This document shows positions 18,439 through 41,011 of a DNA stretch of 41,011 nucleotides, piece after piece. The translations under genes and the position numbers were made by a program. The number at the start of each line of letters is the position of its first letter. The stretch's first letter is position 1. This DNA is from an uncultured Pseudomonadota bacterium (GTDB lineage Bacteria; Pseudomonadota; Alphaproteobacteria; UBA9219): positions 1 to 41,011 of the forward strand of contig CAIPYM010000066.1 in assembly GCA_903869345.1 (NCBI GenBank), given 5' to 3'. Below the pieces are notes generated by a model. It saw only the letters and a list, made by a program, of their open reading frames with translations. It searched no databases and had not been told where the DNA came from.

Positions 18439-18568
18439 CCCTAAATTCTACCCAGACATGAAACGTGATCGACAAGCCTTGTTTTGTTCAATTGGGTTTT
18501 GTTTAATCGGCTCGATTCTGCCATGATTCAGGCAGGCACCGAACGCCTGGGGATTGCAGGTAAGCCTT

Positions 18569-19252
18569 ATGCCTGATACGCCGAACAAAATGGCAGGCCC
18601 GAAGGGGAAACAACACGAATTGTTTGGAGTCGAAACAATGCCTGGCCAGAAAATGCGGTTCGAAACATGGCGGGCGCGGTTGAAGAAACATGGAGGATTT
18701 TTAGTCGGTCGCGTGATGGATGTCATCGTGCCGGAGTTTGAACGTCATGGATTCATCTGGCATTCGGATTACGCGGCAAACTCGGTGCAACAAGTTTCTC
18801 GAAGCACATTGCCACTGCAGATGCGGCAGGGGATCGAGTGGCCAACGGTGGAAATTCAATTTGATCCAAGGCATGGGAGAAATTTCAGCATTTTATTTGC
18901 TTCCCTTCCTCTGGAATGTCGCGAGGGCGGTCGAAAACTGATTGCAAGAGAAAAAGCGGTTGTCGTCAATGCCCCTGTTTGGTTCCTTCTCTGCAAAGGC
19001 AGGAATAGATCTTACGAGGGGCAATTTGGGGTCGGACGTTTTTCGTTACGGCCCCATGCCTGTATGGAGCGGGAGGTCCAAGAAGCCTTTTCGCTGTTAT
19101 CGGTTATTTTCGCGCATTTCGAAAAGAGGGACGAACAACATTGGCTGAATCAACCGTTCGGATATATAGACAAAAACACTCTGTTGGTAAGTTCTTGGCG
19201 AATCTACCTCGAGCATATTGAAAAACAACGAAAGACGGCCCGCAGCGATTGA
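18569..19252 (+). CDS. Hypothetical protein, lower-GC orphan
   Basis: A 227-residue soluble protein that I do not recognise. It has no signal peptide, membrane helix or known catalytic motif. The middle part (VMDVIVPEFERHGFIW..., then a beta-rich stretch WPTVEIQFDPRHGRNFSILF) vaguely recalls DUF4304-like proteins, but I would not assign it. The ending YIDKNTLLVSSWRIYLEHIEKQRK is charged and helical. ATG 18569 has AGG about 8 nt upstream; TTG 18554 is in frame. Its base composition is clearly more AT-rich than the neighbours at 17488 and 19400, which suggests recent acquisition. No companion gene is apparent. Confidence 0.6.
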   Translation: MPDTPNKMAGPKGKQHELFGVETMPGQKMRFETWRARLKKHGGFLVGRVMDVIVPEFERHGFIWHSDYAANSVQQVSRSTLPLQMRQGIEWPTVEIQFDPRHGRNFSILFASLPLECREGGRKLIAREKAVVVNAPVWFLLCKGRNRSYEGQFGVGRFSLRPHACMEREVQEAFSLLSVIFAHFEKRDEQHWLNQPFGYIDKNTLLVSSWRIYLEHIEKQRKTARSD

Positions 19253-22763: not shown

Positions 22764-24281
22764 ATGAACGGCATGGCCGATCCTGCTCTTGCCGCCTCCC
22801 GTGATCCACGTTCCAGCGGAGGCGATTCGTCGCCCGTGCCTCGGGTCGCTCCACACAACGTGGAGGCCGAGCAAAGTCTTTTGGGCGCGATTCTCGTCAA
22901 CAACGCGGCGTATGAAAAAGTGGGCGACTACCTTCGGCCCGAGCATTTTTACGACCCCGTCCATGCTCGCATTTACACCGCCATGGCAACCCTGCTTCAG
23001 CGCGGACAGGTGGCTGATCCCAAGACCCTGCGCGGCTTGTTTGAACACGATCCGGCGTTGGAACCCGTCGGCGGAGCGCGGTACCTCGGCGATTTGGCCG
23101 CCAGCGTCCTCAGCGTTTTTAACGCGGGCGATTACGGACGCCTGATTCACGAACTCGCCCTGCGTCGCCAACTGATTGTCCTCGGCGAGGACGTCGTCAA
23201 CGATGCCTACATCGAAGACCTCGACAACCCCGCGCCCACACAAATCGAACGCACCGAGCAGCGCTTGTTTGAGCTTGCACAAACGGGCCAGCTGGACCGT
23301 GGTTTTGTGAAGCTTGATTCGTCGTTGGCGGTCTCCCTTCGCATGGCGGAAGAAGCGTTCAAACGCGACAGCCATATCACGGGTGTGACGACGGGCCTTA
23401 AGGACCTCGATCGCAAGCTGGGCGGTTTGCAGCGCTCCGACCTTGTGATCCTGGCGGGTCGGCCTTCCATGGGGAAAACCGCGCTTGCCACCAACATCGC
23501 GTTCAACGCTGCACGGGCGTGCCATGACAGCGGCGGCAAAGAAGGAAGCGCTGTTGCGTTCTTCTCGTTTGAAATGTCGTCCGAGCAGCTCGCCACACGC
23601 CTTTTGGGGGAGCATTCTCAGGTGCCTTCGGATAAAATCCGACGCGGTGAGATCAAGCAAGAAGATTTTACCAAGTTCGTGGAAGCCTCGCAGTTTCTCG
23701 CGCACGCGCCCCTCTACATTGACGACACGCCGGGCCTTGGCGTCGCGGCTCTTCGCACGCGGGCGCGACGGCTGAAGCGTTTGGTGCCCACGTTGGGGCT
23801 CATTGTGATTGACTATTTGCAGCTGATTCAGGGCACGTCGCGGCGCGATGATAACCGCGTTCAGGAGGTGTCCGCGATCACGCGCAGCCTGAAGGGACTG
23901 GCCAAGGAGCTGAACATCCCCGTTCTTGCCCTGTCACAATTGTCACGCGCCGTGGAATCGCGCGAGGACAAACAGCCCCAACTTGCGGACCTACGCGAGT
24001 CGGGCTCGATTGAGCAAGACGCGGACGTTGTGATGTTTGTCTACCGCGAAGAATACTACCACGCCCGCAGCGAGCCCTCGCGCCGCCCCGACGAAAGCGA
24101 AGACCGATTCGCGGCGCGCCACCAAAAGTGGATGGAACGCGGCGAGGAGATCGCGAACATCGCCGAGGTCATTATCGCCAAACAGCGCCACGGTCCCATT
24201 GGTACGGTTCCGCTTCACTTCGACGGTCCCTTCACCCGATTCTCGGATCTTGAAAAACATTACCAAGCGCGGGGTGACTGA
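22764..24281 (+). CDS. dnaB: Replicative DNA helicase
   Basis: The hexameric 5'-3' helicase that unwinds DNA ahead of the replication fork. The 505-residue product has the DnaB N-terminal domain (HNVEAEQSLLGAILVNN at 31-47) and the RecA-like motor domain. That domain carries the Walker A GRPSMGKT at 232-239 and Walker B LIVIDYLQLIQ around 345, followed by SAITRSLKGLAKELNIPVLALSQLSR and DLRESGSIEQDADVV. No intein is present. ATG 22764 has AAAGG 6 nt upstream; ATG 22773 is an alternative. The usual alphaproteobacterial order is dnaB-alr-radA. Here a restriction-modification gene starts 4 bp after the dnaB stop and separates it from alr. Confidence 0.97.
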   Translation: MNGMADPALAASRDPRSSGGDSSPVPRVAPHNVEAEQSLLGAILVNNAAYEKVGDYLRPEHFYDPVHARIYTAMATLLQRGQVADPKTLRGLFEHDPALEPVGGARYLGDLAASVLSVFNAGDYGRLIHELALRRQLIVLGEDVVNDAYIEDLDNPAPTQIERTEQRLFELAQTGQLDRGFVKLDSSLAVSLRMAEEAFKRDSHITGVTTGLKDLDRKLGGLQRSDLVILAGRPSMGKTALATNIAFNAARACHDSGGKEGSAVAFFSFEMSSEQLATRLLGEHSQVPSDKIRRGEIKQEDFTKFVEASQFLAHAPLYIDDTPGLGVAALRTRARRLKRLVPTLGLIVIDYLQLIQGTSRRDDNRVQEVSAITRSLKGLAKELNIPVLALSQLSRAVESREDKQPQLADLRESGSIEQDADVVMFVYREEYYHARSEPSRRPDESEDRFAARHQKWMERGEEIANIAEVIIAKQRHGPIGTVPLHFDGPFTRFSDLEKHYQARGD

Positions 24282-24285
24282 CCCC

Positions 24286-27200
24286 ATGGGCAATGCTTTT
24301 CAGGTCTATTTTGCGTGCTTGAAGTCCCTCGATTTGCGGGAGGCCACCGAGCACACCTTGCGCCCGGCTCTTCACAACCTTCTGGCCGCCCAGGTCGAGG
24401 GCACCTTGGTCCAGGTGGTTCCCGAACCCAAGCGCGACGAGTCGGGGCGCGGTGCTCCGGATGTGAAGTTCAAGATCGGGGCGTGCATCCTGGGGTATCT
24501 TGAGAACAAAAAGCCAGAGACCGCGCTGGACCCTGTGGTGAGATCAGATCAGATCAAAAAATACGCGCAGCTATCCGACAATCTCCTTTTGACCAATTAC
24601 CTTGAGTGGCTGTGGCTCCGCGAAGGTATTGTCGTTCAACGTGCAACACTGGCAGCAATCAGCGACCTCGGAAACCCCAAGGCGCGACTCAACCCGGACA
24701 AAGCCGAAAACGTCCGGCAGCTCATCGCGGGATTCTTGTCCGTGCCGCCCAAGGGAATTTCTACGGCCAAAGACCTGGCCGAATCCCTTGCGACCCGATG
24801 CCATACGCTTCGTGCTTTTATGGACGACGAGTTGGTGCGGCAAGAAAAAGAAGATCAACGCGGTCGGCTCTTCGGCTTGTTCAGTGTGTTTAAGCGTGAT
24901 GTGTTCCATGAACTGAGCCTTGCGGGGTTTGCCGACGCGTTTGCACAAATGTTGGGGTATGGTCTGTTTTTGGCGCGGCTCAACAGTGAAGGCCAAGGAC
25001 CCGTGACGTTGGTTACGGCGAAAAAATATATTCCGGTGAACTTTGAACTGATTCGTGAGCTTGTTAACTTTTTGGACGAACTGGACGCCCCCGAGTACGG
25101 GCGCATCAAGTGGATCGTCGAAGAGATTCTCCACCTGATGAACACCCTTGATCTTGGGGCGATTCAGGATGATCTCACCTTCACAGCACGGCAAGGACGG
25201 CTCTTCAGCCCGTCGGAGGAGGAACGTCTTCTTTTTGCCCGTGATCCCTATATTTATTTCTATGAAGGTTTTCTGAAAGCCTATGACTCACACCTCCGCA
25301 AGAGCCGGGGGGTGTATTACACACCTCCTCCTGTGGTGGATTTCATTGTTCGCGCGGTGAACGATGTTTTGAAAGAGACGTTCGGGATCAAAGAAGGCCT
25401 CGCGGACCGCAAACGGGTGACGGTCCTGGATTTTGCCACAGGCACCGGCACGTTTTTACTCGAGGTCATTCAGCAAATCCTCGGCAGTGTTTCCGAAGGT
25501 GTTCGGGATCAGGTCATCCGTGAGCATGTGCTCAAAAATCTCTACGGGTTTGAGTACCTGATTGCCCCCTACACTATCGCGCACCTCAAGCTCTCTCAGT
25601 TTTTGCGTGAACGTGGGTATGTCCTCGGCCCCAAAGAGCGATTCCAGATTTATTTGACCAACACGCTGGAGCCTATTGAACCTCAACAAAACTGGCTTCT
25701 GCCCGCGCTTTCCAAAGAGATTGCCAACGCCCAAATTATCAAAGACAAATCCATTCTCGTCATTACGGGCAATCCGCCGTATTCGGGACATTCGCTTAAC
25801 AAAGGGGCATGGATTTCGCAGCTGATTGAGACGTACAAAAAAGTAGATGGGCAGTCCCTGGGCGAAAAAAACCCCAAGTGGCTTCAAGATGATTATGTGA
25901 AGTTCATCCGATTTGCGCAGTGGAAAATGGCGCAAGTTGAGGAAGGCGTCGTCGGGATCATCACCAACCATTCTTTCCTGGATAACCCGACGTTCCGCGG
26001 TATGCGTCAAAGCCTGATGGAAACCTTCCATCAGATTTACATCCTCGATCTTCACGGCAACAACCGCAAAAAGGAAGAATCGCCCGACGGCAGTCCCGAC
26101 GAGAACATTTTTGATATCGAGCAAGGGGTGTGCATCTCGATTCTGATCCGCCGTCCGGGTCTATCCAGGGGCGTCTTCCACGCGGAATTGTGGGGTAAGC
26201 GTCAGGCGAAATACAAAACGTGTCTCGAATCGTCGCTTGCCTCGGTGTCCTGGGAAAAAGTTTATCCCACGTCACCTTTTTATCTGCTGACGCCTCAGGA
26301 TACCGCACGCCGCGCACGGTACGAAAAGGGCACAAAAATCACCGAGATTTTTCCTGTGAATGTCCTCGGCTTTCAAACGCACCGGGACCATTTTGCGGTG
26401 GATTTCCAGAAGGACGACATTGAACGGAAAGTGCGTGATTTTCGCGACGCCGATATTCCCGATGAAACCTTCCGGGAGACCTTTGCGTTGCAGGATAAGG
26501 GGGGGTGGCACCTGTCTGAATCGCGCCATTTATTGCGAAAAAACAAGGATTTTAAAAAACACATCCTTGAATGTTGTTACAGGCCCTTTGATAAAAGATG
26601 GTGCTATTTTGGACCTGAATTGATGGACCGTCCACGACGTGATATTCTTTCACATGTCGTTGGGAGATCCAACCTATGCCTTGGCGTTGGAAAATGTGGC
26701 AACGCCGTTCCGGAGCGGCCCTGGGAGCTTGTCACGGTCTCGGACGTTCCCATGGACGCGAATCTCTACCGACGTGGAGGGGTGAACGTCTTTCCCCTTT
26801 ACCTGCACGCCCCCACCTCCCCTGCTGTGCCGGAATCGAAAAAGGCCCTATTGCCGCCTTCCGATTCCTTCAAAGGCGAAAAGCGCTGCGAGAACATCGC
26901 TCCTGCAATTCGGGCCTTTTTGGATAAAAAATACGGTCATGCTTACAGTCCCGAGGCTATTTTGGGCTACGTTTACGCCGTTCTTCACAGCCCCACCTAC
27001 CGAACGACGTACGCCGCGTTTCTGAAAATTGATTTTCCACGCATCCCGTTTGTGGACGATCGCAAAGTTTTCGAAAAAGTGTCTTCTTTGGGCCAGAGCC
27101 TCATGGACGCGCACTTGATGCGCGTGATTCCGGACGAAGGCCCGACGGTCACAATCAGCAAGGGAAGTGACCTTGTGGAAAGCCCCCGCTACCAGACCTC

Positions 27201-27423
27201 GGAAAACAAATTGTTTATCAACGCTGATCAGTTTTTCTCCAACGTTCCCGAAGATGTTTGGGCTTTTCACGTGGGTGGCTATCAGGTGCTCGATAAGTAC
27301 CTCAAATCACGCAAGGGCAGGACGCTCACCCTCGATGAAAAAGAACACATGGCCGCTCTGGTCAAAGTTCTCCGTTTCACCCTTGTCTGCCAAGATGAGC
27401 TTGCGCCTCTCAACCTTCTCTGA
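24286..27423 (+). CDS. Single-chain restriction-modification enzyme, type IIG/ISP-like
   Basis: A 1045-residue protein joining putative nuclease, adenine methyltransferase and target-recognition parts. Residues 58-75 (PD at 58-59, E73-x-K75 in GYLENKKP) look like a PD-(D/E)xK nuclease site. A helical linker reaches RGVYYTPPPVVDFIV (341-355). The methyltransferase core has motif I DFATGTGTF (382-390) and motif IV NPPY (496-499), which predicts N6-adenine methylation. The C-terminal 450 residues should hold target recognition. Genuine type ISP enzymes also carry a helicase between nuclease and methyltransferase, and none is visible, so a type IIG label fits better. ATG 24286 lies 4 bp past dnaB and lacks a good ribosome-binding site, suggesting coupling to dnaB. 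Confidence 0.85.
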   Translation: MGNAFQVYFACLKSLDLREATEHTLRPALHNLLAAQVEGTLVQVVPEPKRDESGRGAPDVKFKIGACILGYLENKKPETALDPVVRSDQIKKYAQLSDNLLLTNYLEWLWLREGIVVQRATLAAISDLGNPKARLNPDKAENVRQLIAGFLSVPPKGISTAKDLAESLATRCHTLRAFMDDELVRQEKEDQRGRLFGLFSVFKRDVFHELSLAGFADAFAQMLGYGLFLARLNSEGQGPVTLVTAKKYIPVNFELIRELVNFLDELDAPEYGRIKWIVEEILHLMNTLDLGAIQDDLTFTARQGRLFSPSEEERLLFARDPYIYFYEGFLKAYDSHLRKSRGVYYTPPPVVDFIVRAVNDVLKETFGIKEGLADRKRVTVLDFATGTGTFLLEVIQQILGSVSEGVRDQVIREHVLKNLYGFEYLIAPYTIAHLKLSQFLRERGYVLGPKERFQIYLTNTLEPIEPQQNWLLPALSKEIANAQIIKDKSILVITGNPPYSGHSLNKGAWISQLIETYKKVDGQSLGEKNPKWLQDDYVKFIRFAQWKMAQVEEGVVGIITNHSFLDNPTFRGMRQSLMETFHQIYILDLHGNNRKKEESPDGSPDENIFDIEQGVCISILIRRPGLSRGVFHAELWGKRQAKYKTCLESSLASVSWEKVYPTSPFYLLTPQDTARRARYEKGTKITEIFPVNVLGFQTHRDHFAVDFQKDDIERKVRDFRDADIPDETFRETFALQDKGGWHLSESRHLLRKNKDFKKHILECCYRPFDKRWCYFGPELMDRPRRDILSHVVGRSNLCLGVGKCGNAVPERPWELVTVSDVPMDANLYRRGGVNVFPLYLHAPTSPAVPESKKALLPPSDSFKGEKRCENIAPAIRAFLDKKYGHAYSPEAILGYVYAVLHSPTYRTTYAAFLKIDFPRIPFVDDRKVFEKVSSLGQSLMDAHLMRVIPDEGPTVTISKGSDLVESPRYQTSENKLFINADQFFSNVPEDVWAFHVGGYQVLDKYLKSRKGRTLTLDEKEHMAALVKVLRFTLVCQDELAPLNLL

Positions 27424-27452: not shown

Positions 27453-28547
27453 ATGGCTGCACCGTATCTCTCCCGGATTCTGATTCATACCGAAGCGCTG
27501 CGGGCCAATTACGCGATTCTTCTTCGCCACGCGGCCCCCGCCCAGGTCGGAGCGGCTGTCAAAGCCGACGCCTACGGGCTGGGGATGGGACCCGTCGCCA
27601 CGATTCTCGCGGAAGAAGGCTGCAAGACGTTTTTCGTGGCCAACATCGACGAGGCTCTGGAGCTCAGAGCCCTTTTGCCCGACGCCCCCACCATCGCTGT
27701 CTTGGGCGGCGTGCCCGCCAACGCTTTGAACGAAACCCGCGAGAATCGCTTGACGCCTGTTCTGAACGACCTGGACGCGGTTCAAGCCTGGAGCAGCCAC
27801 GCCTTTCAACGTGGCAAACTGCTGCCCGCCCTCATCCATCTGGACACCGGTATGCATCGGCTCGGACTCACCGAGGCCGAGACCGCGCGGCTGGCCGCTG
27901 ATACCCTGCTCCTCGGCAGCTTACGGATTCGTGCGTGGATGAGCCACCTCGCTTGCGCCGATGCTTTTGATCACCCGATGACCATCTCGCAAAGGGACCG
28001 CTTTGTCCGGCTGCTGCGCACACTGCCGAAGGCTCCCGCAAGTCTGGCCAATTCGTCCGGAATCTTTTGGGGCATAGGCTACCTCTTTGACCTCGTGCGA
28101 CCCGGCGCGGCCCTGTACGGGATCAACCCCACGCCGCACCGTGCCAACCCCCTGCACGGCGTTGTGGAACTTCAGGCTCCCTTGTTAGAGATCCAAGACG
28201 TGCCATCCGGCGCGAGCGTTGGCTACGGCGCGACCCATCGCTTTACACATCCCGCACGAGTCGCCACGGTCGCGCTGGGGTACGCCGACGGGTACCTGCG
28301 AGCGCTTGGAAACAAAGGGACGGCCAAAATTGGCCTGTTCGAGGCCCCCGTGATCGGACGCATTTCGATGGACCTCACGACGTTGGACGTGACGGGCCTT
28401 CCTCCGTCCGTCGCCCACGTGGGTGCTTACGCGACGCTGATGGGCCCTCACCGCCCCGTGGATGCCCTTGCCGCCGATGCTGGAACCATCGGCTATGAAA
28501 TTCTGACCCGCCTCGGCCCCCGCGTGATTCGGAAGATGGTGCCGTAG
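27453..28547 (+). CDS. alr: Alanine racemase
   Basis: A PLP enzyme that interconverts L- and D-alanine for peptidoglycan. The 364-residue product has an N-terminal TIM barrel with the PLP lysine at 37 in VKADAYGLG, and a C-terminal beta domain. The tyrosine base lies in SVGYGATHRF, and VALGYADGYLR and GRISMDLTTLDV are typical. ATG 27453 has AGGA about 10 nt upstream and follows the restriction-modification gene by 29 bp on the same strand. It is probably still transcribed with dnaB. radA, the usual next gene, is not here; leuB converges from the other strand 15 bp downstream. Confidence 0.96.
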   Translation: MAAPYLSRILIHTEALRANYAILLRHAAPAQVGAAVKADAYGLGMGPVATILAEEGCKTFFVANIDEALELRALLPDAPTIAVLGGVPANALNETRENRLTPVLNDLDAVQAWSSHAFQRGKLLPALIHLDTGMHRLGLTEAETARLAADTLLLGSLRIRAWMSHLACADAFDHPMTISQRDRFVRLLRTLPKAPASLANSSGIFWGIGYLFDLVRPGAALYGINPTPHRANPLHGVVELQAPLLEIQDVPSGASVGYGATHRFTHPARVATVALGYADGYLRALGNKGTAKIGLFEAPVIGRISMDLTTLDVTGLPPSVAHVGAYATLMGPHRPVDALAADAGTIGYEILTRLGPRVIRKMVP

Positions 28548-31282: not shown

Positions 31283-31603
31283 GACGCGCACCCTCGTGAG
31301 CAGGAACACCGTTCTTAACCGAACAACCGTGACAAACAACCACGGCCCAACCGAATTCACAAAAAGCCTTGAACACTTAGAAGAATATGGCTCCCCTTTG
31401 TGGAGGAGTATCGAACTCTTTTTATGCTCCCAGGTAGAGAGATGCAAGCCATTATTGAGGCTGCATCGGCTATGAATGCCTCATAGCTCTGCCCATATTC
31501 TCAGTAAGAATCCGGCTTTAGGATTCAAACCACCATTAAAATGGGCAATCATTCGGTTCGCTTGGGGAATTTTCCTTATGATTTCGTATTCTGTGAGGCT
31601 GTA
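31283..31603. other. Junction spacer between chromosomal block and accessory module
   Basis: About 320 bp without a credible gene, noticeably more AT-rich than the genes to its left. It must hold the promoter of the DAHP synthase (minus strand) and that of the first accessory gene. Short inverted repeats are present: GAATCC/GGATTC at 31508-31526 and TGAGGC/GCCTCA around 31457-31482. No tRNA, integrase or direct-repeat attachment site could be found. Confidence 0.45.
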
Positions 31604-32188
31604 ATGCGCGGTGGTATGCGACATGGGGCTGGGCGGCCAGCTCAACATGGCAAGGTGGACCATCATCGCCAGATTGATATTCGCCGATGGGCGCGTGAGA
31701 GTATGATCAAAGATGGAGGATATTTCGGGTGGCAATGGCAGCAGGACGGCAAACAAGTTGCTTCAATCGGGGTGCGCGTCAATTCCGCCGATATGCTAAC
31801 GCTGATTTACCGGTTGGAACGGGATGAGGTTTGGCGCGAGGAGTCCATTCCAATCCGTTTGGCAAAAACGGCTTGTCACTATGGTGGGGAGCGGCCTTGG
31901 TTTATTTGTCCCCATTGTGGCAGGCAGGCGGCCATTCTCTATTTGGCTTCCGGCAAATGGTTTTGTCGTGAATCGCTGAAACTTACCTATGCCAGTCAGA
32001 GCGAGGACTATCTGGACCGACTCAACAGGAAAAAATCAAAGCTGGAAGCCAAACTACAAGGATCAAGAAAACCAAAAGGGATGCACCAAATCAGTTATGA
32101 GCGGCTCAAACAGCAGTGGATCAACGCAGAAATGACGTGGGACAATGAATTTGCCATCCGAGCAATGCAGCTTTTTGGCTCTCTATAG
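31604..32188 (+). CDS. Zinc-ribbon-like protein of mobile elements
   Basis: A 194-residue protein of a family I know only as hypothetical. It opens MRGGMRHGAGRPAQHGK, has a mid-protein block ASIGVRVNSADMLTLIYRL, and a ribbon HYGGERPWFICPHCGRQ...WFCRES followed by LKLTYASQSEDYLDRL. Relatives end the ribbon CRHC or CRxC. Here the last Cys is Ser (CRES), leaving three cysteines, so zinc binding may be weakened. GAGG lies 5 nt before ATG 31604; an upstream ATG at 31541 lacks a site. Such proteins recur in plasmids, prophages and integrated elements, which supports an accessory origin. The function is unknown. Confidence 0.65.
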   Translation: MRGGMRHGAGRPAQHGKVDHHRQIDIRRWARESMIKDGGYFGWQWQQDGKQVASIGVRVNSADMLTLIYRLERDEVWREESIPIRLAKTACHYGGERPWFICPHCGRQAAILYLASGKWFCRESLKLTYASQSEDYLDRLNRKKSKLEAKLQGSRKPKGMHQISYERLKQQWINAEMTWDNEFAIRAMQLFGSL

Positions 32189-32203
32189 TTTGTTGTCCCC
32201 AAC

Positions 32204-32227
32204 GCTAAAATTGCTAAAGCCGCTAAA
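32204..32227. repeat. Three 9-bp-spaced GCTAAA repeats
   Basis: GCTAAA occurs at 32204-32209, 32213-32218 and 32222-32227, exactly 9 bp apart, upstream of the XRE regulator. The reverse complement TTTAGC, within GTTTAGC, recurs in the XRE promoter (32302-32308) and before the next gene set (33444-33450). Such an array could be operator half-sites or iterons. Confidence 0.55.
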
Positions 32228-32281
32228 CTTACACGTCTACCAAAGGTTGTTGGCAAGCGCAGGAAACTGTTTAATCAACAC

Positions 32282-32310
32282 TTGACACCATCTTCCGAAT
32301 CGTTTAGCTT
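32282..32310 (+). promoter_or_regulatory. Predicted promoter of the XRE-ImmA operon
   Basis: A perfect -35 box TTGACA (32282-32287) and a weak -10 TAGCTT (32305-32310) have a 17-bp spacer. The -10 region overlaps the motif GTTTAGC (32302-32308), a likely operator for the repressor encoded 23 bp downstream. Confidence 0.5.
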
Positions 32311-32332
32311 TACCTACACAGAGGGAGTCGCC

Positions 32333-32686
32333 ATGACGAAGCAACACCAAGAGTTCGGCCAATTCATTCGTGACCACAGGGAGGGGATGAAGATCACTCT
32401 GCGGCAATTGGCGCGTGATATTGAGGTTTCTCCTACCTATCTGAGCCAGATTGAGCAGGGCAATTTTTCGCCGCCCTCCGAAGAGAAAATTCGCTTGCTC
32501 GCTCAACACCTCAAGTTGGATGAGGATGAATTGCTGGCGATGGCTAACAAGATTCCCAGCGACCTAAAGCCCATTTTCACGGATCAGCCGCGACCGGTGG
32601 CCGACTTTCTGCGAACGGCAAAAGGGTTGTCGGAAGAAGATTGGGAAAAACTGCGGAAACAGGCCCAAGAAATGCAGAAGGAGTAA
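32333..32686 (+). CDS. XRE-family transcriptional regulator
   Basis: A 117-residue repressor-type protein. An XRE helix-turn-helix lies at about 8-65: FGQFIRDHREGMKITLRQLARDIEVSPTYLSQIEQG, with SPTYLSQIE as recognition helix. A C-terminal helical part (FLRTAKGLSEEDWEKL) probably dimerises. GGGAG lies 6 nt before ATG 32333. It is followed immediately by an ImmA/IrrE metalloprotease gene. This is the ImmR/ImmA-like pairing in which the protease cleaves the repressor to release an integrated element or a stress response. Autoregulation is likely through the GTTTAGC sites in its promoter. Confidence 0.9.
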   Translation: MTKQHQEFGQFIRDHREGMKITLRQLARDIEVSPTYLSQIEQGNFSPPSEEKIRLLAQHLKLDEDELLAMANKIPSDLKPIFTDQPRPVADFLRTAKGLSEEDWEKLRKQAQEMQKE

Positions 32687-32693
32687 GGTGGAA

Positions 32694-33419
32694 ATGCTGG
32701 ACGATTACATTTCAAAGGAGGATTTGGAAGTTATGGCCATTGATGCGATTTCCGGTTTCGAGCTGAATAACGGCCAGATTCTCAAACCGCCGGTTCCGCT
32801 TGATCAAATTATGGAAGGCCATTTGGGATTGACCATTCAGTTTAGCGGCCAGCTTCCAGCAGATGTTTTGGGCTGTTTATCCGTCAAGGATAGGATTGTC
32901 ACGATAAACGAACGCCTTGATACCTACGGCTGTCCCCAAAACGAAGGCCGATGCAATTTTACCATTGCCCACGAAGGCGGCCATGAAATTGCCCATGCGC
33001 CGTATTTGCGTACCACGACGGATTTGCGCGATTTGTTCGGCAGAGGGGCCGCACCTGTAACGACGATCCTATGTCGCAAAGACAACCAGAACGCAAAAAT
33101 CGAATTTCAGGCCAATTATATCGGCGCGGCACTTTTGATGCCGAAAAAGTTAATGCACCAGTTTTGGCAGGATCGTTTTGGCAGTCTTCAGCAACTTGAT
33201 GAAAATGCCCTTCTTCACAAACTGAGGCTTGATAACAATTTTTTGGCGGAAGTGAATCGTATGCGGGGCGATGATAACGATGCTCTTTTGGAAGAGCATT
33301 TCAGGCCGATCGCAAAAGAATTCACGGTGTCACCAGAAGCGTTTTGCCGCCGCCTAAAAACGCTTGGCTTGTTGGGCTCTCACAACAACGGGGAGTTGTT
33401 TGCACGCGCTGGTGCGTGA
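32694..33419 (+). CDS. ImmA/IrrE-family metallopeptidase
   Basis: About 241 residues with the gluzincin-like active site FTIAHEGGHEIAH (HExxH), and the downstream Glu in IEFQANYIGAALLMP, the usual EFQANxFAAxLLMP of this family. Family members are zinc proteases that cut the cognate XRE repressor. ATG 32694 is preferred (AAGGAG at 32678-32683, spacing 10); GTG 32688 is in frame. The gene begins 7 bp after the XRE stop. Together they should form a switch controlling the adjacent element genes. The C-terminal half (EVNRMRGDD... SPEAFCRRLKTLGL) may sense the inducing signal. An intrinsic terminator overlaps its stop codon. Confidence 0.9.
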   Translation: MLDDYISKEDLEVMAIDAISGFELNNGQILKPPVPLDQIMEGHLGLTIQFSGQLPADVLGCLSVKDRIVTINERLDTYGCPQNEGRCNFTIAHEGGHEIAHAPYLRTTTDLRDLFGRGAAPVTTILCRKDNQNAKIEFQANYIGAALLMPKKLMHQFWQDRFGSLQQLDENALLHKLRLDNNFLAEVNRMRGDDNDALLEEHFRPIAKEFTVSPEAFCRRLKTLGLLGSHNNGELFARAGA

Positions 33420-33427
33420 GTTTTTTT
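33402..33427 (+). terminator. Intrinsic terminator at the end of the ImmA gene
   Basis: CACGC and GCGTG pair around a 6-nt loop. The stem overlaps the ImmA stop codon and is followed by seven T (33421-33427). It separates the immunity switch from the replication genes. Confidence 0.6.
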
Positions 33428-33470
33428 GTCACGGTTGTTTAGTGTTTAGCTAACAAATTGGGGTAAAATC

Positions 33471-33830
33471 ATGGTGTCACCCTTTCCAAAAACAGGCTTG
33501 CGTGAAGCCCTTGCGCTTATCACCCATGAAATTGTGGGAGGGTTGCGACATGGCTTTTTTGATTTTTCGATTATCGGCGAATCCGTGCGGCAAGGCGAAT
33601 GCAGCCTGACTTTCAAGGCAGGGAAAAGCCACCGCTTCCGCATACCGGAAAGCGATTTTTGCGGAAACCCCACCTTCACCGTCAGCGACTCTGAACAAAA
33701 GAGCGCACCGATGCAACTCATTCACCAAAACGATCAGAAAAATCCTGACGTGACGGTTGGAAACAACAACCATGACGACACAGGACAACGATCTTTGGAG
33801 CAAGCGGTACGGTGCAAAAATGAACGATGA
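33471..33830 (+). CDS. Hypothetical small protein
   Basis: A 119-residue protein that I do not recognise. The first 75 residues look globular (GLREALALITHEIVGGLRHGFFDFSIIG...KSHRFRIPESDF). The rest is polar and probably disordered. A purine-rich GGGG lies about 9 nt before ATG 33471, and the AT-rich upstream region carries GTTTAGC (33444-33450), matching the motif in the XRE promoter. It overlaps the next small gene by 59 bp in another frame. It may be an accessory factor for the primase gene that follows, by position only. Confidence 0.5.
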   Translation: MVSPFPKTGLREALALITHEIVGGLRHGFFDFSIIGESVRQGECSLTFKAGKSHRFRIPESDFCGNPTFTVSDSEQKSAPMQLIHQNDQKNPDVTVGNNNHDDTGQRSLEQAVRCKNER

Positions 33831-33924
33831 GGAAAAGCGCGTGATTAAGGACAACCTTACCGGCTTTTTTAAAATTTTGCGCGAATGGAAGGCGCAGGAG
33901 GTGGCTAATGCTCAATTTCAATGA
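33772..33924 (+). CDS. Hypothetical 50-residue protein
   Basis: A short reading frame, MTTQDNDLWSKRYGAK..., ending ...EVANAQFQ. It is strongly charged and helical in the second half. It overlaps the preceding gene by 59 bp and the primase gene by 17 bp, the tight packing usual in phage-like operons. No good ribosome-binding site precedes ATG 33772, so translation may depend on coupling. It may be a small DNA-binding or regulatory peptide, but this is a guess; the frame could also be chance. Confidence 0.4.
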   Translation: MTTQDNDLWSKRYGAKMNDEEKRVIKDNLTGFFKILREWKAQEVANAQFQ

Positions 33925-34855
33925 CATTGAAACCGCAGCACGTGACCGGACGCTGGATTGCCTCCACTGGCTTTTACCGGACGGCAAATTGCGCGGCGAC
34001 GAGTTTTGTGCCTTGAATCCGACGCGGCGCGACCACAAGGCTGGATCGTTCGCCTATAACGTCCGCAAACACGTTTGGAGTGATTTTGCCAGCAATGACA
34101 AGGGCAAAGGAATTATCGGCCTATGGCGATATGTCCGCAACAAGTCCTTCAAGGATGCTGCTTGCGAATTGGCGCGGTGTCTTGGCATAGACAGCGAAAG
34201 GATCCCTCCCGATTTTATGCGGTGCGTTGCGCCGGAACAGGCCGTTAAAGTTGATAAACATGAAAAATGGATTACCCAGCTATGGCAACAATCTGTCCCT
34301 GCCCAAGGAACGCTGGCCGAAAAATACCTTCAAGGCCGTGGCATTTCATGCGTGATACCGCCAACCATCCGTTTTCTTCCGGCACACAAACACAGTGACA
34401 CCAGCTTGATTTTTCCCGTCATGCTGGCGGCTGTGACCGTTTGGCCGTCAAAGAATATTACCGCCCTGCATCGGACGTATTTGAAATCCGACGGTTCCGG
34501 CAAGGCGGATGTTACGCCCAACAAAAAAATGATCGGCCGTGTCGCAGGTGGAGGCGTCCGCCTCGCGCAGTCAGCGGAAATCATGGCAGTGGGCGAAGGC
34601 ATTGAAACGTGCCTTGCCGCGCAGCAAGCAAGCTGTGTGCCGACATGGGCAGCGTTGTCCACAAGCGGCATGATCAGCCTCATTCTTCCTGATCTGCCCT
34701 TTGGCCGCGAAATCATCATTGCTGCTGACAACGACAACGCTGGCATGGATGCCGCGCAAAAAGCCGCCGCACGTTGGATTGATGAAGGCCGCAAGATACG
34801 GCTTGCCGTTCCTCCTCAAGACCAAGACTTCAACGATTTATTGAGGACACCATGA
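33908..34855 (+). CDS. Toprim-domain primase-like protein
   Basis: A 315-residue protein resembling the primase part of phage and plasmid primase-helicases (DUF7146/Toprim_3 type). The N-terminal half (DRTLDCLHWLLPDGKLRGDEF... HKAGSFAYNVRKHVWSDFAS) resembles the zinc-less primase leader domain. The Toprim domain is at about 224-290, with the Glu of MAVGEGIET (Glu230) and the Asp-x-Asp of IIAADNDNAGMDAA (Asp274, Asp276). AGGAGG lies 7 nt before ATG 33908. Its stop overlaps the next start by ATGA. With the following ATPase it should prime and open the replication origin of the element. Confidence 0.82.
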   Translation: MLNFNDIETAARDRTLDCLHWLLPDGKLRGDEFCALNPTRRDHKAGSFAYNVRKHVWSDFASNDKGKGIIGLWRYVRNKSFKDAACELARCLGIDSERIPPDFMRCVAPEQAVKVDKHEKWITQLWQQSVPAQGTLAEKYLQGRGISCVIPPTIRFLPAHKHSDTSLIFPVMLAAVTVWPSKNITALHRTYLKSDGSGKADVTPNKKMIGRVAGGGVRLAQSAEIMAVGEGIETCLAAQQASCVPTWAALSTSGMISLILPDLPFGREIIIAADNDNAGMDAAQKAAARWIDEGRKIRLAVPPQDQDFNDLLRTP

Positions 34856-36375
34856 CCGAGGAAGCCATTAAATCCGCCTTTGAAAATGCGGAAGAATTAA
34901 CCGCTGAAAACGTGACCGAGGCTCCGCGCCTGTTACGACGGCCCCTTGCTCCTGCCCAACCTTACCCTGTTGAAGCTCTTGGTAAAGACATGGCGCGGGC
35001 GGTACAAGCCATCCGCAACAAGATTCAGGCCCCCGACGCTATTTGCGCCCAGTCCGTTCTATCCGCCGCAACGCTGGTGACGCAAGGACATGGCGATGTT
35101 GTGTTGCATACAGGGCAATCGCGTCCATCGTCCGAGTATTTTTTGACGATTGCCGATAGCGGGGAGCGAAAAACAAGTGCCGATTCCGAAGCCCTGCGCG
35201 GGATTGAATCTTATGAAAAAGCCCTGCGCGAACAATACGATGTGGACGAGGCTGAATACAGCAATCAGTTTGCCGCGTGGGATAGACAGCGCACCCAGAT
35301 TTTAACCGACAAGACAAAATTTCCAACGCAATTCAGCAAAAAACAGGCGTTGGATGATTTGGGGATTGCGCCACCTGCTCCCCTTTTTCCGGCAATTATT
35401 TGCCCAGAACCGACCTATGAAGGCTTGTGCAAGCTGTTGGCAATAGGCCAGCCCAGCATGGGCGTATTTTCAAACGAGGGGGGCCAGTTTATCGGTGGCC
35501 ACGGCATGAAAGAAGATAACCGACTGAAAACCGCCGCCGGTATGTCCGACCTCTGGGACGGCAAAACAATCAAGCGCGTGAGAAGCGGAGACGGGGCAAG
35601 CATAATTCCAGGTCGTCGCCTAAGTGTGCATCTTATGGTGCAGCCGATGGTTTTCAGCCAGTTTTATTCTGACAAATTGTTGGAAAGTCAGGGCGTATTT
35701 TCGAGGATTCTTGTTGCCGCTCCCGATAGCGAGGCAGGCAAACGCTTTTACAAACCGGTGTCATCGCAAGACGTTCAAGCACTTCAAACCTTCGCTTGTT
35801 CGCTTGTGAATGCATTGCGTGCGCCGTTGCCATTAGCGGCTGGCAAGCGGAATGAATTATCACCAAGGCTTGTTGAACTTTCTCCAAAAGCCAAAGAATT
35901 GCTGATAAAATTCAGCGACCATGTTGAAAGACAGCTTGCCGAAGGCCAGCCGTATCATCCGATCAAGCCGTTAGCGAATAAGCTGGCCGAACACGCGGCA
36001 CGAATGGCGGCGACAAAAACTTTGTTCGCGGATTTGTTGGCCGCCGAAATAGATCATCACGTCATGGCGGAGGCGATTACACTCGCGGAATTTTATGCGG
36101 GGGAAGCCCTGCGGCTTCGCGGCGCGTTGTGCATAAACCCAATGTTGGCCTTGGCAGAAAAGGCTTTGACGTGGATGCAAACAAAATGGGGGGAAGGGCT
36201 GATTTCCCTGCCAGACATTTATCAGTTTGGAACGCACGGGATTGAGGACAAAAACACCGCCCTGAAAATCGTGAACATTTTGCAAGATCATGGATGGCTG
36301 GTGCGCGTGAACGGAGGCAGCGTTGTGAGAGGCCAAAAGCGGCGCGACGTGTGGCAGATCGTGGGGAGACCTTGA
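34852..36375 (+). CDS. DUF3987-type ATPase/helicase-like protein
   Basis: A 507-residue protein with the layout of DUF3987 (YfjI-like) proteins found beside Toprim primases in prophages and integrated plasmids. The Walker A-like loop is IADSGERKTSAD (about 101-112). EPTYEGLCKLLAIGQPSMGVFSNEGGQF and the conserved SVHLMVQPMVF follow. The C-terminal winged-helix-like end (ALKIVNILQDHGWLVRVNGG) could bind DNA. Its start overlaps the primase stop (ATGA, 34852-34855), so translation is coupled. A role in replication is inferred from family context. The next gene starts on the overlapping TTGA. Confidence 0.8.
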   Translation: MTEEAIKSAFENAEELTAENVTEAPRLLRRPLAPAQPYPVEALGKDMARAVQAIRNKIQAPDAICAQSVLSAATLVTQGHGDVVLHTGQSRPSSEYFLTIADSGERKTSADSEALRGIESYEKALREQYDVDEAEYSNQFAAWDRQRTQILTDKTKFPTQFSKKQALDDLGIAPPAPLFPAIICPEPTYEGLCKLLAIGQPSMGVFSNEGGQFIGGHGMKEDNRLKTAAGMSDLWDGKTIKRVRSGDGASIIPGRRLSVHLMVQPMVFSQFYSDKLLESQGVFSRILVAAPDSEAGKRFYKPVSSQDVQALQTFACSLVNALRAPLPLAAGKRNELSPRLVELSPKAKELLIKFSDHVERQLAEGQPYHPIKPLANKLAEHAARMAATKTLFADLLAAEIDHHVMAEAITLAEFYAGEALRLRGALCINPMLALAEKALTWMQTKWGEGLISLPDIYQFGTHGIEDKNTALKIVNILQDHGWLVRVNGGSVVRGQKRRDVWQIVGRP

Positions 36376-36674
36376 CCGCGCATCTCCCCAAATTTAATGC
36401 GCTTGAAGTCCTGCGCGATATGGAAGGAGCGGAAAACAACAAGCCGAATCCAGCTTTAGCGACTTTAGAAACTTTAGCCAAAACAACATCCGTTTTGTCG
36501 CCGTTGCGGGATAAAATCTTGGGCTTCACGGATGATGATTGGTACGAAATTGATGAGCGATCCGCTATCATTCAACATGACGGTGGCAGGTCGCGTTTCG
36601 AGGCGGAGGCGCGAGCAATAGCGGAGCAAATGGCGAGAGGAGTGAACGATGGGTGCGGAAATCATCGAGCTTGA
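36372..36674 (+). CDS. Hypothetical protein with TTA-rich 9-bp repeat
   Basis: About 100 residues of unknown function, charged, with a C-terminal helix (RFEAEARAIAEQMARG). TTG 36372 overlaps the stop of the DUF3987 gene (TTGA) and has GGGGAG 3 nt upstream. ATG 36420 is the alternative. The coding sequence contains three TTA leucine codons at exact 9-bp spacing, in the peptide ALATLETLAK (36451-36480), in a region otherwise poor in TTA. The DNA repeat there matches the motif upstream of the XRE gene. The end overlaps the next gene by 26 bp. It is probably part of the same operon. Confidence 0.5.
   Translation: MTAHLPKFNALEVLRDMEGAENNKPNPALATLETLAKTTSVLSPLRDKILGFTDDDWYEIDERSAIIQHDGGRSRFEAEARAIAEQMARGVNDGCGNHRA
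36454..36478. repeat. Three 9-bp-spaced CTTTAG repeats
   Basis: CTTTAG at 36454-36459, 36463-36468 and 36472-36477; the outer two extend to CTTTAGC. This is the reverse complement of the GCTAAAG-type units at 32204-32227 with the same 9-bp spacing, about 4.2 kb away at the other end of the module. Confidence 0.5.
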
Positions 36675-37464
36675 AAACAGCGGCGCGGATCAGGGCGGCT
36701 ATGCCCTCTCGCGCCTCAACGCCGTGAGGCATGGCATTTTATCGCGTCATGCGATTTTGCCGTGGGAGGACCAGGCCGATTACGACAAGCTCGCAGAGGG
36801 TCTTGTGGCGGAATACCAACCGGCCACACCTACCGAGTGCCATCTTGTGGAAGAACTGACGGGGATCATTTGGCGCAAGGCGCGTGTGCGCGTGGCTGAG
36901 GGAAGCGCGTTTCGCAGGGAAGCGGCGCGAACCGTCAAACATTTTGGATCGGACGCGCCTGAATATGTCACCGCCGCGCTTGTCGCCACCACCACGGAAC
37001 CCCAGGCCCTGAAGGACGGCATAACAAGCCTTGCTGACAATGTAACGGATTTGGAAGCGCAGGAAGCAGCAAAAAGTTTGGCCTACTGGGAAGAACGGCA
37101 ACAACGCTTTGAAGCCGACGGCTTGGCGGCGGCACAATCCATGTTGGACGATGAGGATCAAGCGGATTGGAAAGAATACCGGCAACAGATTGTGCAAAAC
37201 CGGCGGGAAAGGGGATACACGCCGCATAAGGACGATCAAATGTTTGCCGATTGGTTGGGGGAATGCGTCGGACATTTCCGCCAAATCGTCATCCAACACC
37301 AACACACCCCCGCTATTCGCCAGCAAATCATCGGTATGTCTTACGCCACCGAGCGGATGGACGGCATTGCCCGGTACGAAACTCACCTCGACCGGAAATT
37401 TGAGCGCATTTTGGCGATGTTGATCAAGCTCAGAGAGATGCAAGGGATCAAACGCATCGTCTGA
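36649..37464 (+). CDS. Hypothetical protein of mobile elements (NAVRHGIL-type)
   Basis: A 271-residue soluble, charged helical protein. The N-terminal block [30 protein letters not shown] resembles a family often seen in plasmids, prophages and near transposases. In that family NALKHGLLS is followed by a four-helix region ending in LDRKFERxLxxLxxLR, matched here by [23 protein letters not shown]. The function is not known to me. GAGGAG lies 8 nt before ATG 36649, and the gene overlaps the previous one. It closes the accessory operon: a 109-bp spacer with an inverted repeat follows before the methyltransferase gene. Confidence 0.65.
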
Positions 37465-37481
37465 ACGCCGAAGACGCTGGA

Positions 37482-37529
37482 CCTCTCCCAACGGGGCACG
37501 TCTGGCTAGACGGCGGAAGGCGGGAGAGG
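37482..37529. other. Inverted repeat upstream of the methyltransferase gene
   Basis: CCTCTCCC (37482-37489) and GGGAGAGG (37522-37529) enclose a smaller stem, GTCT/AGAC. The arms resemble the rpsB terminator stem at 16066-16091, so this may be a chromosomal repeat or the boundary of the accessory module. It could also form a structured leader for the gene at 37574. Confidence 0.4.
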
Positions 37530-37573
37530 GATACTGCGCCCCTCGCAAGCCTGTTTTTGAGGGTGCGGTCCCG

Positions 37574-39721
37574 ATGAATCTCACCGATCACGAAATCCGT
37601 GACATCACGCGCTTGCTTCAGCAAGGCAAGCCTCTGCCCGATCAGTATCGGTTCCTCTTGTTTGAGGACAAGCGCGAGGTGGAGCTTGTTTGGAACGGGA
37701 AGACGAACGACGTGTGCAACGTCGTCTTACCCTTTCAGACCATCGAACAGGTGGACGAGCCGCGATCCGAGGACACGATCAAAAGAACAGGCGATTTGTT
37801 TGACCCCCACACGGGACGGCAACTCAAAGGGTGGACGAATAAGCTGATCTGGGGGGACAACAAGCTGATTCTGTCGTCCCTGAAAAACGGCCCCTTGCGA
37901 GAAGAGATTGAAAAACAAGGCGGCATCAAGCTGATCTACATTGATCCGCCCTTTGACGTGGGCGCGGATTTTTCGATGGACATCGAAATCGGCGAGGACA
38001 CGCTCACCAAACAACCCTCGGTCCTGGAAGAAATCGCCTACCGCGACACCTGGGGCAAAGGCGCGGATAGCTTTATCGCGATGATTTACGAGCGACTCGC
38101 GCTGATGCGGGATTTGATGGCGGAGGACGGAACAATATACGTTCATATTAACCAAGATATGTTGCCGTATATGCGATGTCTGTTAAATGAAATTTTTAGA
38201 AACGAGAATCATCTCAATGATGTTGTTTGGCATTTTGAAAATAAGCCAAAATTTAGTTTCTCAAAAGTTCTCCCACGTGACTGGGAGTATATTACTTGTT
38301 ATGCAAAAAGGAGTGGTCACCATAAGTTTGAACATCAACTCGTTCCAGTGAAAGAAGTTCAGCAACAAGCCATTGTGTCGTGGGACCCAATCAATAAAAA
38401 ACGCACTGCTAAAAGAGATGAAAACGGAAATATAATATATGAAACCCGCACAGAGAAGTTAATGGGAGCTGTTTGGACATTGCCAATTATTCATCCGATT
38501 GGCAATGAGCGACTTAATTATCCCACACAAAAGCCAGAAAGTATCTTGGAACGTATTATGAAAATATCCTCCAACGAGGGCGACTTGGTAGCTGACTTCT
38601 TTGCGGGGTCGGGCACGACGTTGGCGGTGGCGGAAAAGCTGGGGCGCAAGTGGATCGGCTCGGACCTCGGTAAATTTGCCATTCACACCACGCGCAAACG
38701 CATGATCGGCGTCCAGCGAACCCTGAAACAAGAAAACAAAAGTTGGCGGGCGTTTGAGATTCTGAACCTCGGTAAATACGAACGCCAGCACTACATCGGC
38801 ATGAACGCCTCGCTGCGCGACCAGGAAAAACACAAACAGCGCGAGGCCAAAGAAGCGGCCTTTGTTGCGCTGATTCTGAAAGCCTACAAAGCCGAGGCGA
38901 CCGAGGGCACGGGCGTTTTCCACGGCAAGAAAACCGGACGCATGGTGGCGGTCGGTCCCGTCAACATGCCCGTCACGCGCTTGTTTGTGGAAGAAGTCGT
39001 CAACGAATGCCGCCAAAAGCATCTGACTCGGGCCGACATTCTGGCGTTTGAGTTTGAAATGGGGCTTGTCCCCACCGCGATTGACGAGGCGAAAGGCAAG
39101 GGTCTGGACCTCGCCCTTAAACACATTCCGCGTGAGGTGTTCGACAAACGCGCCGTGGAAAAGGGCCAGGTCGTTTTCCACGATGTCGCGTTTATCGAAA
39201 TCAAACCCCTGATTGTCGGCACAACTCTCGCGGTGCAGTTGACCGACTTTTCCGTGTTCTACAATCAGGACAGCTTGCGTGACGTCGAAGCCAACCTGAA
39301 AAACGGCGGCACGAAACTGGTGGTGGACAACGGCAAGATCATCAAAGTTGTGAAAGACAAAATCGGCATCACCACGCGGGAGGTCCTGACCAAAAATTGG
39401 ACGGACTGGATTGACTACTGGGCCGTGGATTATGATTTTACCAGCAAGCGTGAACTGATTCGCGTTCGCCGCGACGTGCACGGCCAGACGAGCCTTGAAG
39501 GACTGGAACCTGCGCAACAGGCCCTCCTCGAGTATGAGGAAATCTGGACCGGAGACTACATTTTTGAAAACGAATGGCAGTCCTTCCGCACTAAGAAAAA
39601 CCGCAAAATTGAGCTGACCAGTGCCCCCAAAGAAGTCCCCAAAGGCCGCCGCACCCTCGCCGTCAAAGTCGTGGACATCTTTGGCAACGACACCACAAAA
39701 GTGATTGAGGTGGGGGTATGA
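37574..39721 (+). CDS. Type III-like site-specific DNA methyltransferase (Mod)
   Basis: A 715-residue beta-class DNA methyltransferase, predicted to make N6-methyladenine. The SAM/catalytic order is inverted as in this class: motif IV DPPF (124-127) comes first, and motif [10 protein letters not shown] (341-349) follows the target-recognition region. The C-terminal third (about 400-715), with [17 protein letters not shown] and a stretch ending [13 protein letters not shown]-like, probably contacts the restriction subunit. Residues 186-335 are encoded by DNA of about 37% GC by hand count, whereas both flanks are about 60%. This suggests an exchanged recognition domain. GAGGG lies about 9 nt before ATG 37574. 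It is first in a mod, KilA-N, res-like operon. Confidence 0.9.
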
Positions 39722-39750
39722 CGAAAAACACTTGTCCATCAAAGGGTTCC

Positions 39751-39774
39751 AATTGGGGCGAATTCGCCCCAATT
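39751..39774. promoter_or_regulatory. Perfect 24-bp palindrome in the mod-KilA-N spacer
   Basis: AATTGGGGCGAA is followed directly by its exact reverse complement, then AAAAA. It lies in the 73-bp gap before the KilA-N gene. It can form a 10-bp or longer hairpin in RNA, or serve as an operator. The stretch also lies within a 24-codon frame (39718-39792) that overlaps the mod stop by ATGA. Confidence 0.6.
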
Positions 39775-39794
39775 AAAAACGCGAGGGTTTAAGC

Positions 39795-40679
39795 ATGTTG
39801 TCCTTCCTTCCAAAAAAGCGTTCGGTAACCGTTCAGGATAATGTCGTCTCTGTCCTGAACGTGGACGGTGAAGACTACATTTGTCTGACCGATATGATAA
39901 AAGCAAAAGACGGCGAATTCTTTGTGAAAGATTGGCTTCGGAACAGAAACACTCTGGAATTTCTAGCTGTTTGGGAAGAAATGCACAATCCAAGTTTTGA
40001 TGCTAGCCATTTTGTTAAGATTGCCGAGCAATCCGGTCTGAATAATTTTAAAATCAGTGTGAAGGAGTGGATTGAGCAAACAGGCGCAAAAGGTGTTGTT
40101 GCCAAATCGGGACGTTATGGGGGCACCTACGCGCACCGCGATATTGCCTTTGAATTTGGGACCTGGATTAGCCCCACTTTCAAGCTCTACCTTATTAAGG
40201 AATATCAACGACTCAAAGAAATCGAGAGCAATCAGTACAACCTGGAATGGAATGTTAAGCGACTGGTGAGCAAAGCAAATTACCACATTCATACCGACGC
40301 CATTAAAAATCACCTCATCCCTGTTTCTCGAAAATGGAACAAGGACATGGAATACGCCGAAGAAGCGGACGTTTTGAACGTTGTTCTCTTTGGCTGCACC
40401 GCTAAGGAGTGGCGTGAGCGCAATCTCGAACGTGTAAAAAATGGCGAAAACGTTCGCGATTCTGCCAGCATCAACGAGCTGATCGTGCTTTCCAATATGG
40501 AAAGCCAAAACGCTAAGATGATGCGTGACGGAATCGGGCGACGGGAACGTTTTGAGACTCTTCAACGTGAAGCACGGCACGAGATTCAAATCTTGAACAG
40601 TCGGGACACCACGCGGAGTCTTAAGAAAACCTCCGAAGAGGTCTATTTGTTGGAAGACAAAAAGGGGAAGGAAACGTAA
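39795..40679 (+). CDS. KilA-N domain protein
   Basis: A 294-residue protein with an N-terminal KilA-N DNA-binding domain at about 18-145: YICLTDMIKAKDGEFFVKDWLRNRNTLEFLAVWE, then VKEWIEQTGAKGVVAKSGRYGGTYAHRDIAFEFGTWISPTFKLYLIKEYQRL. A long charged helical region follows, with GCTAKEWRERN and NGENVRDSASINELIVLSNMES. KilA-N proteins are typical of phages and large DNA viruses but also appear inside restriction operons. GAGGG lies 8 nt before ATG 39795. The tight gene order mod, KilA-N, res-like suggests a role in regulating or assisting the R-M system. The exact role is unknown. Confidence 0.85.
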   Translation: MLSFLPKKRSVTVQDNVVSVLNVDGEDYICLTDMIKAKDGEFFVKDWLRNRNTLEFLAVWEEMHNPSFDASHFVKIAEQSGLNNFKISVKEWIEQTGAKGVVAKSGRYGGTYAHRDIAFEFGTWISPTFKLYLIKEYQRLKEIESNQYNLEWNVKRLVSKANYHIHTDAIKNHLIPVSRKWNKDMEYAEEADVLNVVLFGCTAKEWRERNLERVKNGENVRDSASINELIVLSNMESQNAKMMRDGIGRRERFETLQREARHEIQILNSRDTTRSLKKTSEEVYLLEDKKGKET

Positions 40680-40939: not shown

Positions 40940-41011
40940 AGATCGGAAGAGCACACGTCTGAACTCCAGTCACTGGCTCAGATCTCGTATGCCGTCTTCT
41001 GCTTGAAAAGG
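40940..41011. other. Illumina TruSeq adapter and index at the contig end (artefact)
   Basis: From 40940 the sequence begins AGATCGGAAGAGCACACG and continues as the TruSeq read-1 adapter to 40973. An 8-base index, TGGCTCAG (40974-40981), follows. Then ATCTCGTATGCCGTCTTC and the rest of the P7 end run to 41005, with a tail AAAAGG. It is sequencing-library sequence, not genome. Translated in reverse it gives the well-known contaminant peptide MTGVQTCALPI. Confidence 0.99.

What the first reader, a model, noticed from the sequence alone, without database searches (positions are those of the whole stretch)
24286..27423. A restriction-modification enzyme lodged between dnaB and alr in a housekeeping operon
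Seen: the 1045-residue enzyme starts 4 bp after the dnaB stop and ends 29 bp before alr, all on one strand, with no promoter or good ribosome-binding site of its own. Known: dnaB-alr(-radA) is a common alphaproteobacterial order. Inference: a restriction gene was inserted precisely into an essential operon and may be translated by coupling to dnaB. That would tie restriction to replication-gene expression and make loss of the operon harder.
Basis: partly seen in the sequence, partly recalled or inferred. Interest (0 to 1): 0.6.

Follow-up and report, generated by a model that had tools for sequence, protein, structure and literature searches.

The report
Borrowed restriction gene between dnaB and alr
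A single-gene DNA restriction-modification enzyme of a well-known kind, gained by horizontal transfer, sits snugly between the replication helicase gene dnaB and the cell-wall gene alr in one uncultured alphaproteobacterial lineage; the enzyme is ordinary, but the position is unusual and its translation may depend on that of dnaB.

Summary
An intact 1045-aa ORF (24286-27423) starts 4 bp after dnaB and ends 29 bp before alr, same strand. It is a type IIG (IIC) restriction-modification enzyme of the BBQ67 kind: PD...ExK nuclease site, N6-adenine methyltransferase motifs and a Type_ISP_C recognition domain, but no helicase domain, so not a true type ISP enzyme. Adjacent dnaB-alr is the class norm (104 of 115 listed genomes linked, 96 within 500 bp); only this genome has the enzyme there. 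GC is 52.5% against 60-64% for its neighbours, only 2 of 33 genomes of the order carry a homologue, and the nearest relatives lie in other families: a lineage-restricted horizontal insertion. The genome has three further homologues, none its closest relative. That fits translational coupling but is unproven, and the fold is not unusually stable. No promoter-like site lies at the dnaB end. A tie between restriction and replication, or protection against gene loss, remains speculation. A known kind of enzyme at an unusual address.

The parts
22764..24281 (+). dnaB, replicative DNA helicase (505 aa), intact
   Evidence: NF006606 695 bits, above cut-off 540; C-terminus of normal length compared with relatives
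24271..24285 (+). Shine-Dalgarno-like GGGGUGA (24271-24277) in the last dnaB codons; GGGGU (24271-24275) predicted to pair with ACCCC (24281-24285) directly before the AUG, dnaB stop codon partly in the loop
   Evidence: anti-SD pairing -10.7 kcal/mol; fold of the 75-nt junction z = -1.94, 8 of 200 shuffles as good; SD core predicted unpaired with P <= 0.08
24286..27423 (+). type IIG (IIC) restriction-methyltransferase, 1045 aa, BBQ67-like
   Evidence: PADLOC REase_MTase_IIG PDLC03610 9.9e-254; Pfam Type_ISP_C 1.1e-78, N6_Mtase 1.5e-10; full-length homologues on Borrelia plasmids
24457..24510 (+). PD...ExK nuclease active-site motif (P58 D59 ... E73 N K75)
   Evidence: P58, D59, E73 and K75 invariant across 8 homologues including BBQ67
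25429..25455 (+). methyltransferase motif I, DFATGTGTF (residues 382-390)
   Evidence: alignment
25771..25782 (+). methyltransferase motif IV, NPPY (residues 496-499)
   Evidence: alignment
26344..27342 (+). Type_ISP_C target-recognition domain (residues 687-1019)
   Evidence: PF18135, 265 bits
27453..28547 (+). alr, alanine racemase (364 aa), intact
   Evidence: TIGR00492 235 bits, above cut-off 168

Best explanation
The gene is a complete, horizontally acquired single-polypeptide type IIG (IIC) restriction-modification enzyme that entered the short dnaB-alr junction in this lineage without damaging either neighbour. Most likely it methylates an adenine in a short recognition site on the host DNA and cuts incoming DNA that lacks the mark. 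With no promoter-like site at its 5' end, a 4-bp gap and its Shine-Dalgarno sequence inside dnaB, it is most likely read from the dnaB transcript. Ribosomes finishing dnaB then probably reinitiate on it, or open the hairpin that masks its ribosome-binding site; alr follows from its own AGGA site. Shown: gene structure, motifs, insertion limited to this genome as sampled, foreign composition. Inferred: enzyme activity, co-transcription. Predicted only: translational coupling.
For: Intact nuclease and methyltransferase motifs; IIG family match; relatives reported to restrict incoming DNA in Borrelia (PMC4466376). GC 0.525 against dnaB 0.604 and alr 0.637. Homologue in 2 of 33 genomes of the order and 13 of 385 of the class. 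Closest relatives are in other families (G223 62%, G125 53%, G694 52%), while own-genome homologues are only 43, 38 and 28% identical and fall in separate places of the tree. dnaB-alr adjacency is the class norm and only this genome has the enzyme there. Full-length relatives occur on viral contigs and plasmids, which gives a vehicle. SD site and occlusion as above. Small stop-start spacing and structure over the ribosome-binding site are features linked to coupling (PMC12548453).
Against: No empty site in a near relative: the other family members read have lost dnaB-alr linkage. No target duplication or element ends were found at the borders, so how it inserted is unknown. The junction fold is no more stable than at many other ATGs of the window (164 of 492 as stable or more), and the structure has no comparative support because the junction is unique. 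The promoter scan covers only sigma-70-type consensus sites. No expression data.
Confidence: 0.75

Rival explanations
1. The enzyme is an independent cargo gene that merely landed downstream of dnaB; it is transcribed by read-through but translated from its own Shine-Dalgarno site, without dependence on dnaB translation.
For: A Shine-Dalgarno match of -10.7 kcal/mol exists, and the local fold is of ordinary stability. The other three homologues in the genome lie in unrelated contexts, so the family needs no coupling.
Against: The SD is inside dnaB and predicted to be paired; the 4-bp stop-start spacing favours reinitiation.
Confidence: 0.4
2. Ancient arrangement: the enzyme gene was between dnaB and alr in the family ancestor and was lost in the others together with the linkage.
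For: All other family genomes read have rearranged downstream of dnaB, so absence there is not an empty site.
Against: Sister families and the class have dnaB-alr without it; its composition still differs from the host; it is absent from 22 of 23 other family members, and the one homologue (G005) lies elsewhere and groups with the C4 copy.
Confidence: 0.12
3. Assembly artefact joining an unrelated enzyme gene into the dnaB-alr junction.
For: The window end carries a sequencing adapter, so the assembly is not perfectly clean.
Against: Both junctions fall exactly between complete genes, more than 13 kb from the contig ends, in one continuous 41-kb contig; the assembly is 99% complete with 0.13% contamination.
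Confidence: 0.04

Closest known systems
Borrelia BBQ67 / BBE02 restriction-modification enzymes (lp56, lp25)
   Same: Full-length collinear relative (37% identity to BBQ67), same PD...ExK, methyltransferase and recognition layout, single gene; loss of bbe02 and bbq67 raises transformation (PMC4466376)
   Different: Those are on plasmids; this one is chromosomal between two core genes
Type ISP enzymes LlaBIII / LlaGI (PDB 4xqk, 5ffj)
   Same: Methyltransferase plus recognition domains match (residues 323-1005 to LlaBIII 846-1522, 2.9e-45)
   Different: No SF2 helicase-like ATPase domain; 1045 against 1578 residues (domain layout of type ISP: PMC4872093)
Restriction-modification enzyme of PDB 7lo5
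   Same: Matches over methyltransferase and recognition domains (1.5e-40) at similar length (1029 aa)
   Different: Not closer in sequence than LlaBIII; target site unknown for the window enzyme
Compact type IIC systems as mobile genes (PMC4176335)
   Same: Compact single-gene systems, overabundant on mobile elements, above all plasmids of spirochaetes
   Different: Here no mobile element is recognisable around the gene

Membership tests
Type IIG (IIC) restriction-modification enzyme | Nuclease, methyltransferase and target recognition in one polypeptide | tested here: met
   PD...ExK, motif I, NPPY and Type_ISP_C in one ORF
Type IIG (IIC) restriction-modification enzyme | Match to a IIG family model over the whole protein | tested here: met
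   PDLC03610 843 bits; PDLC03631 covers residues 19-1010
Type IIG (IIC) restriction-modification enzyme | Cleaves at a fixed distance from its site and methylates it, without ATP-driven translocation | not testable with these tools
   Needs biochemistry or a methylome
Type ISP | SF2 helicase-like ATPase between nuclease and methyltransferase | tested here: not met
   No helicase family in Pfam; LlaBIII aligns only from its residue 846
Type ISP | Type ISP C-terminal specificity domain | tested here: met
   PF18135 1.1e-78
BBQ67-like enzymes | Full-length collinear homology including the N-terminal nuclease | tested here: met
   99% coverage in tblastn; alignment
Translationally coupled gene pair | Co-directional genes with very small stop-start distance | tested here: met
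   +4 bp
Translationally coupled gene pair | Downstream ribosome-binding site weak or masked by RNA structure | tested here: inconclusive
   SD predicted paired, fold z -1.94, but not unusual among the window's ATGs
Translationally coupled gene pair | Downstream translation depends on upstream translation | not testable with these tools
   Needs a reporter or ribosome profiling
Gene insertion with target duplication or mobile-element ends | Direct or inverted repeats at the borders | tested here: not met
   No border repeats among those listed

The most novel reading that the evidence does not exclude
A restriction enzyme whose translation depends on that of the replicative helicase gene: ribosomes terminating at dnaB open a hairpin that masks the enzyme's start, so restriction rises and falls with the replication machinery, and loss of the enzyme by simple deletion risks harming two core genes.
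Probability: 0.2. Interest if true: 0.5.

Novelty: new member of a known kind. Interest (0 to 1): 0.25.

Why it matters
Compact single-gene restriction-modification systems are enriched on mobile elements. Here one has settled inside a conserved pair of core genes, without a recognisable vehicle and without harming either neighbour, so there is little free deletion space around it. If coupling to dnaB is real, it would be a simple way to keep the enzyme level in step with DNA replication, which matters for an enzyme whose modification must keep pace with new DNA. Otherwise it is a neat example of a known gene type in an unusual place.

Tried and rejected
Target-site duplication or element ends at the borders: none. 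Type ISP membership: rejected, no helicase domain. dnaB-alr junction as a hot spot for this enzyme: among 104 linked genomes seven others have more than 1 kb between the genes; where readable these hold other things (opposite-strand aldo-keto reductase in G231; transporter and other genes in G408), never this enzyme. Duplication within the genome: rejected, the homologues are 28-43% identical and scattered in the tree. Phage records: only two weak partial matches, though 29 viral contigs in IMG/VR matched, most of them with full-length relatives. A tentative pattern of enzyme homologues near replication genes (dnaB here, dnaA on C9) is two cases seen after the fact and is not claimed. Structure prediction was not run: the motif alignment answered the question.

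Full report
What is there. dnaB ends at 24281, the enzyme ORF runs 24286-27423 (1045 aa), and alr begins at 27453, all on the + strand. dnaB and alr are intact members of their families, and the DnaB C-terminus has the same length as in relatives, so the enzyme gene interrupts neither.

What the enzyme is. Pfam gives N6_Mtase and Type_ISP_C; PADLOC gives a type IIG restriction enzyme-methyltransferase with 843 bits. In an alignment with BBQ67 of Borrelia and alphaproteobacterial relatives, P58, D59, E73 and K75 (a PD...ExK nuclease site), the DFATGTGTF motif I and NPPY are conserved. It matches LlaBIII only from the methyltransferase onwards and has no helicase family, so it is type IIG/IIC rather than a true type ISP enzyme, although plasmid records call such proteins 'type ISP'. 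BBQ67 and BBE02 are reported to lower transformation of B. burgdorferi (PMC4466376), so the likely job is cutting unmodified incoming DNA.

Where it came from. GC content is 52.5%, dnaB 60.4%, alr 63.7%. Within the order only 2 of 33 genomes carry a homologue, within the class 13 of 385 at E <= 1e-80. The nearest relatives are in other families (62, 53 and 52%), and the three other homologues in the same genome are 43, 38 and 28% identical and lie in different places of the tree (most deep forks unresolved). This points to horizontal transfer, with separate acquisitions. Full-length relatives occur on viral contigs and plasmids, and compact IIC systems are known to be enriched on mobile elements (PMC4176335).

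The site. In a class sample 115 genomes, G000 included, had both dnaB and alr among the listed matches; 104 had alr downstream of dnaB on the same strand within 20 kb, 96 of them within 500 bp. These are the best-scoring listed matches, not a random sample. Gaps in inspected cases range mostly from an 11-bp overlap to about 90 bp, with one case of about 350-400 bp holding a GIY-YIG gene (G030). Eight genomes have more than 1 kb between the two, and only G000 has this enzyme there. In the family, the 16 other genomes whose dnaB surroundings were read have neither alr nor the enzyme after dnaB, so the closest direct empty sites are in sister families. The insertion is therefore confined to this genome as far as sampled, but its date within the family is not fixed.

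Expression. No sigma-70-like site lies at the dnaB end on the + strand. The same GGGGU is predicted to pair with ACCCC just before the AUG. A review of coupling names small spacing and such masking structures among the features of coupled pairs (PMC12548453). Against over-reading: the fold has z = -1.94 against shuffles but is matched or exceeded at a third of the window's ATGs, and with no second genome there is no covariation test.

Verdict. The position is unusual and probably makes the gene part of the dnaB transcript; coupling is plausible and unproven; the wider claim that restriction is tied to replication is speculation.

Noticed in passing
window 40940-41011: The contig end carries an Illumina TruSeq adapter (agatcggaagagcacacgtctgaactccagtcac... 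to ...gccgtcttctgcttg): contamination, not genome sequence.
   Followed up: yes
window 31541-40679: Low-GC block (46-56%) after aroG with phage- or element-like genes: IrrE-like peptidase, Toprim primase, DUF3987 helicase-like protein, KilA-N protein, and a 715-aa DNA methyltransferase (37574-39721, PF01555, type III Mod-like); probably an integrated mobile element cut by the contig end.
   Followed up: partly
L165 5421-11501 (G000 contig C9): A second type IIG homologue (44%) lies downstream of dnaA on the same strand, with a small ORF and a GIY-YIG/DUF4357 gene between; two of the four homologues thus lie near replication genes, which may be chance.
   Followed up: partly
L167 4966-8331 (G000 contig C14): A third homologue overlaps the 3' end of the convergent ychF gene by 11 bp; with the C4 copy (18 bp to the next ORF) and the C9 copy (0 bp to a convergent gene), all four sit in very tight junctions.
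   Followed up: partly
L176 1633-1917 (G030): In a sister-family genome a small GIY-YIG gene with palindromic repeat sequence lies between dnaB and alr.
   Followed up: no
L161 5217-5504 and L152 8651-8923: Two related enzymes (G694, G349) are followed by a small conserved protein (...HVRN.L...M..AE.WPW...), a possible accessory gene that has no room in the 29-bp gap of the window.
   Followed up: no
window 18554-19252: Low-GC (49%) ORF of 232 aa without Pfam match between higher-GC core genes; possibly another foreign gene.
   Followed up: no
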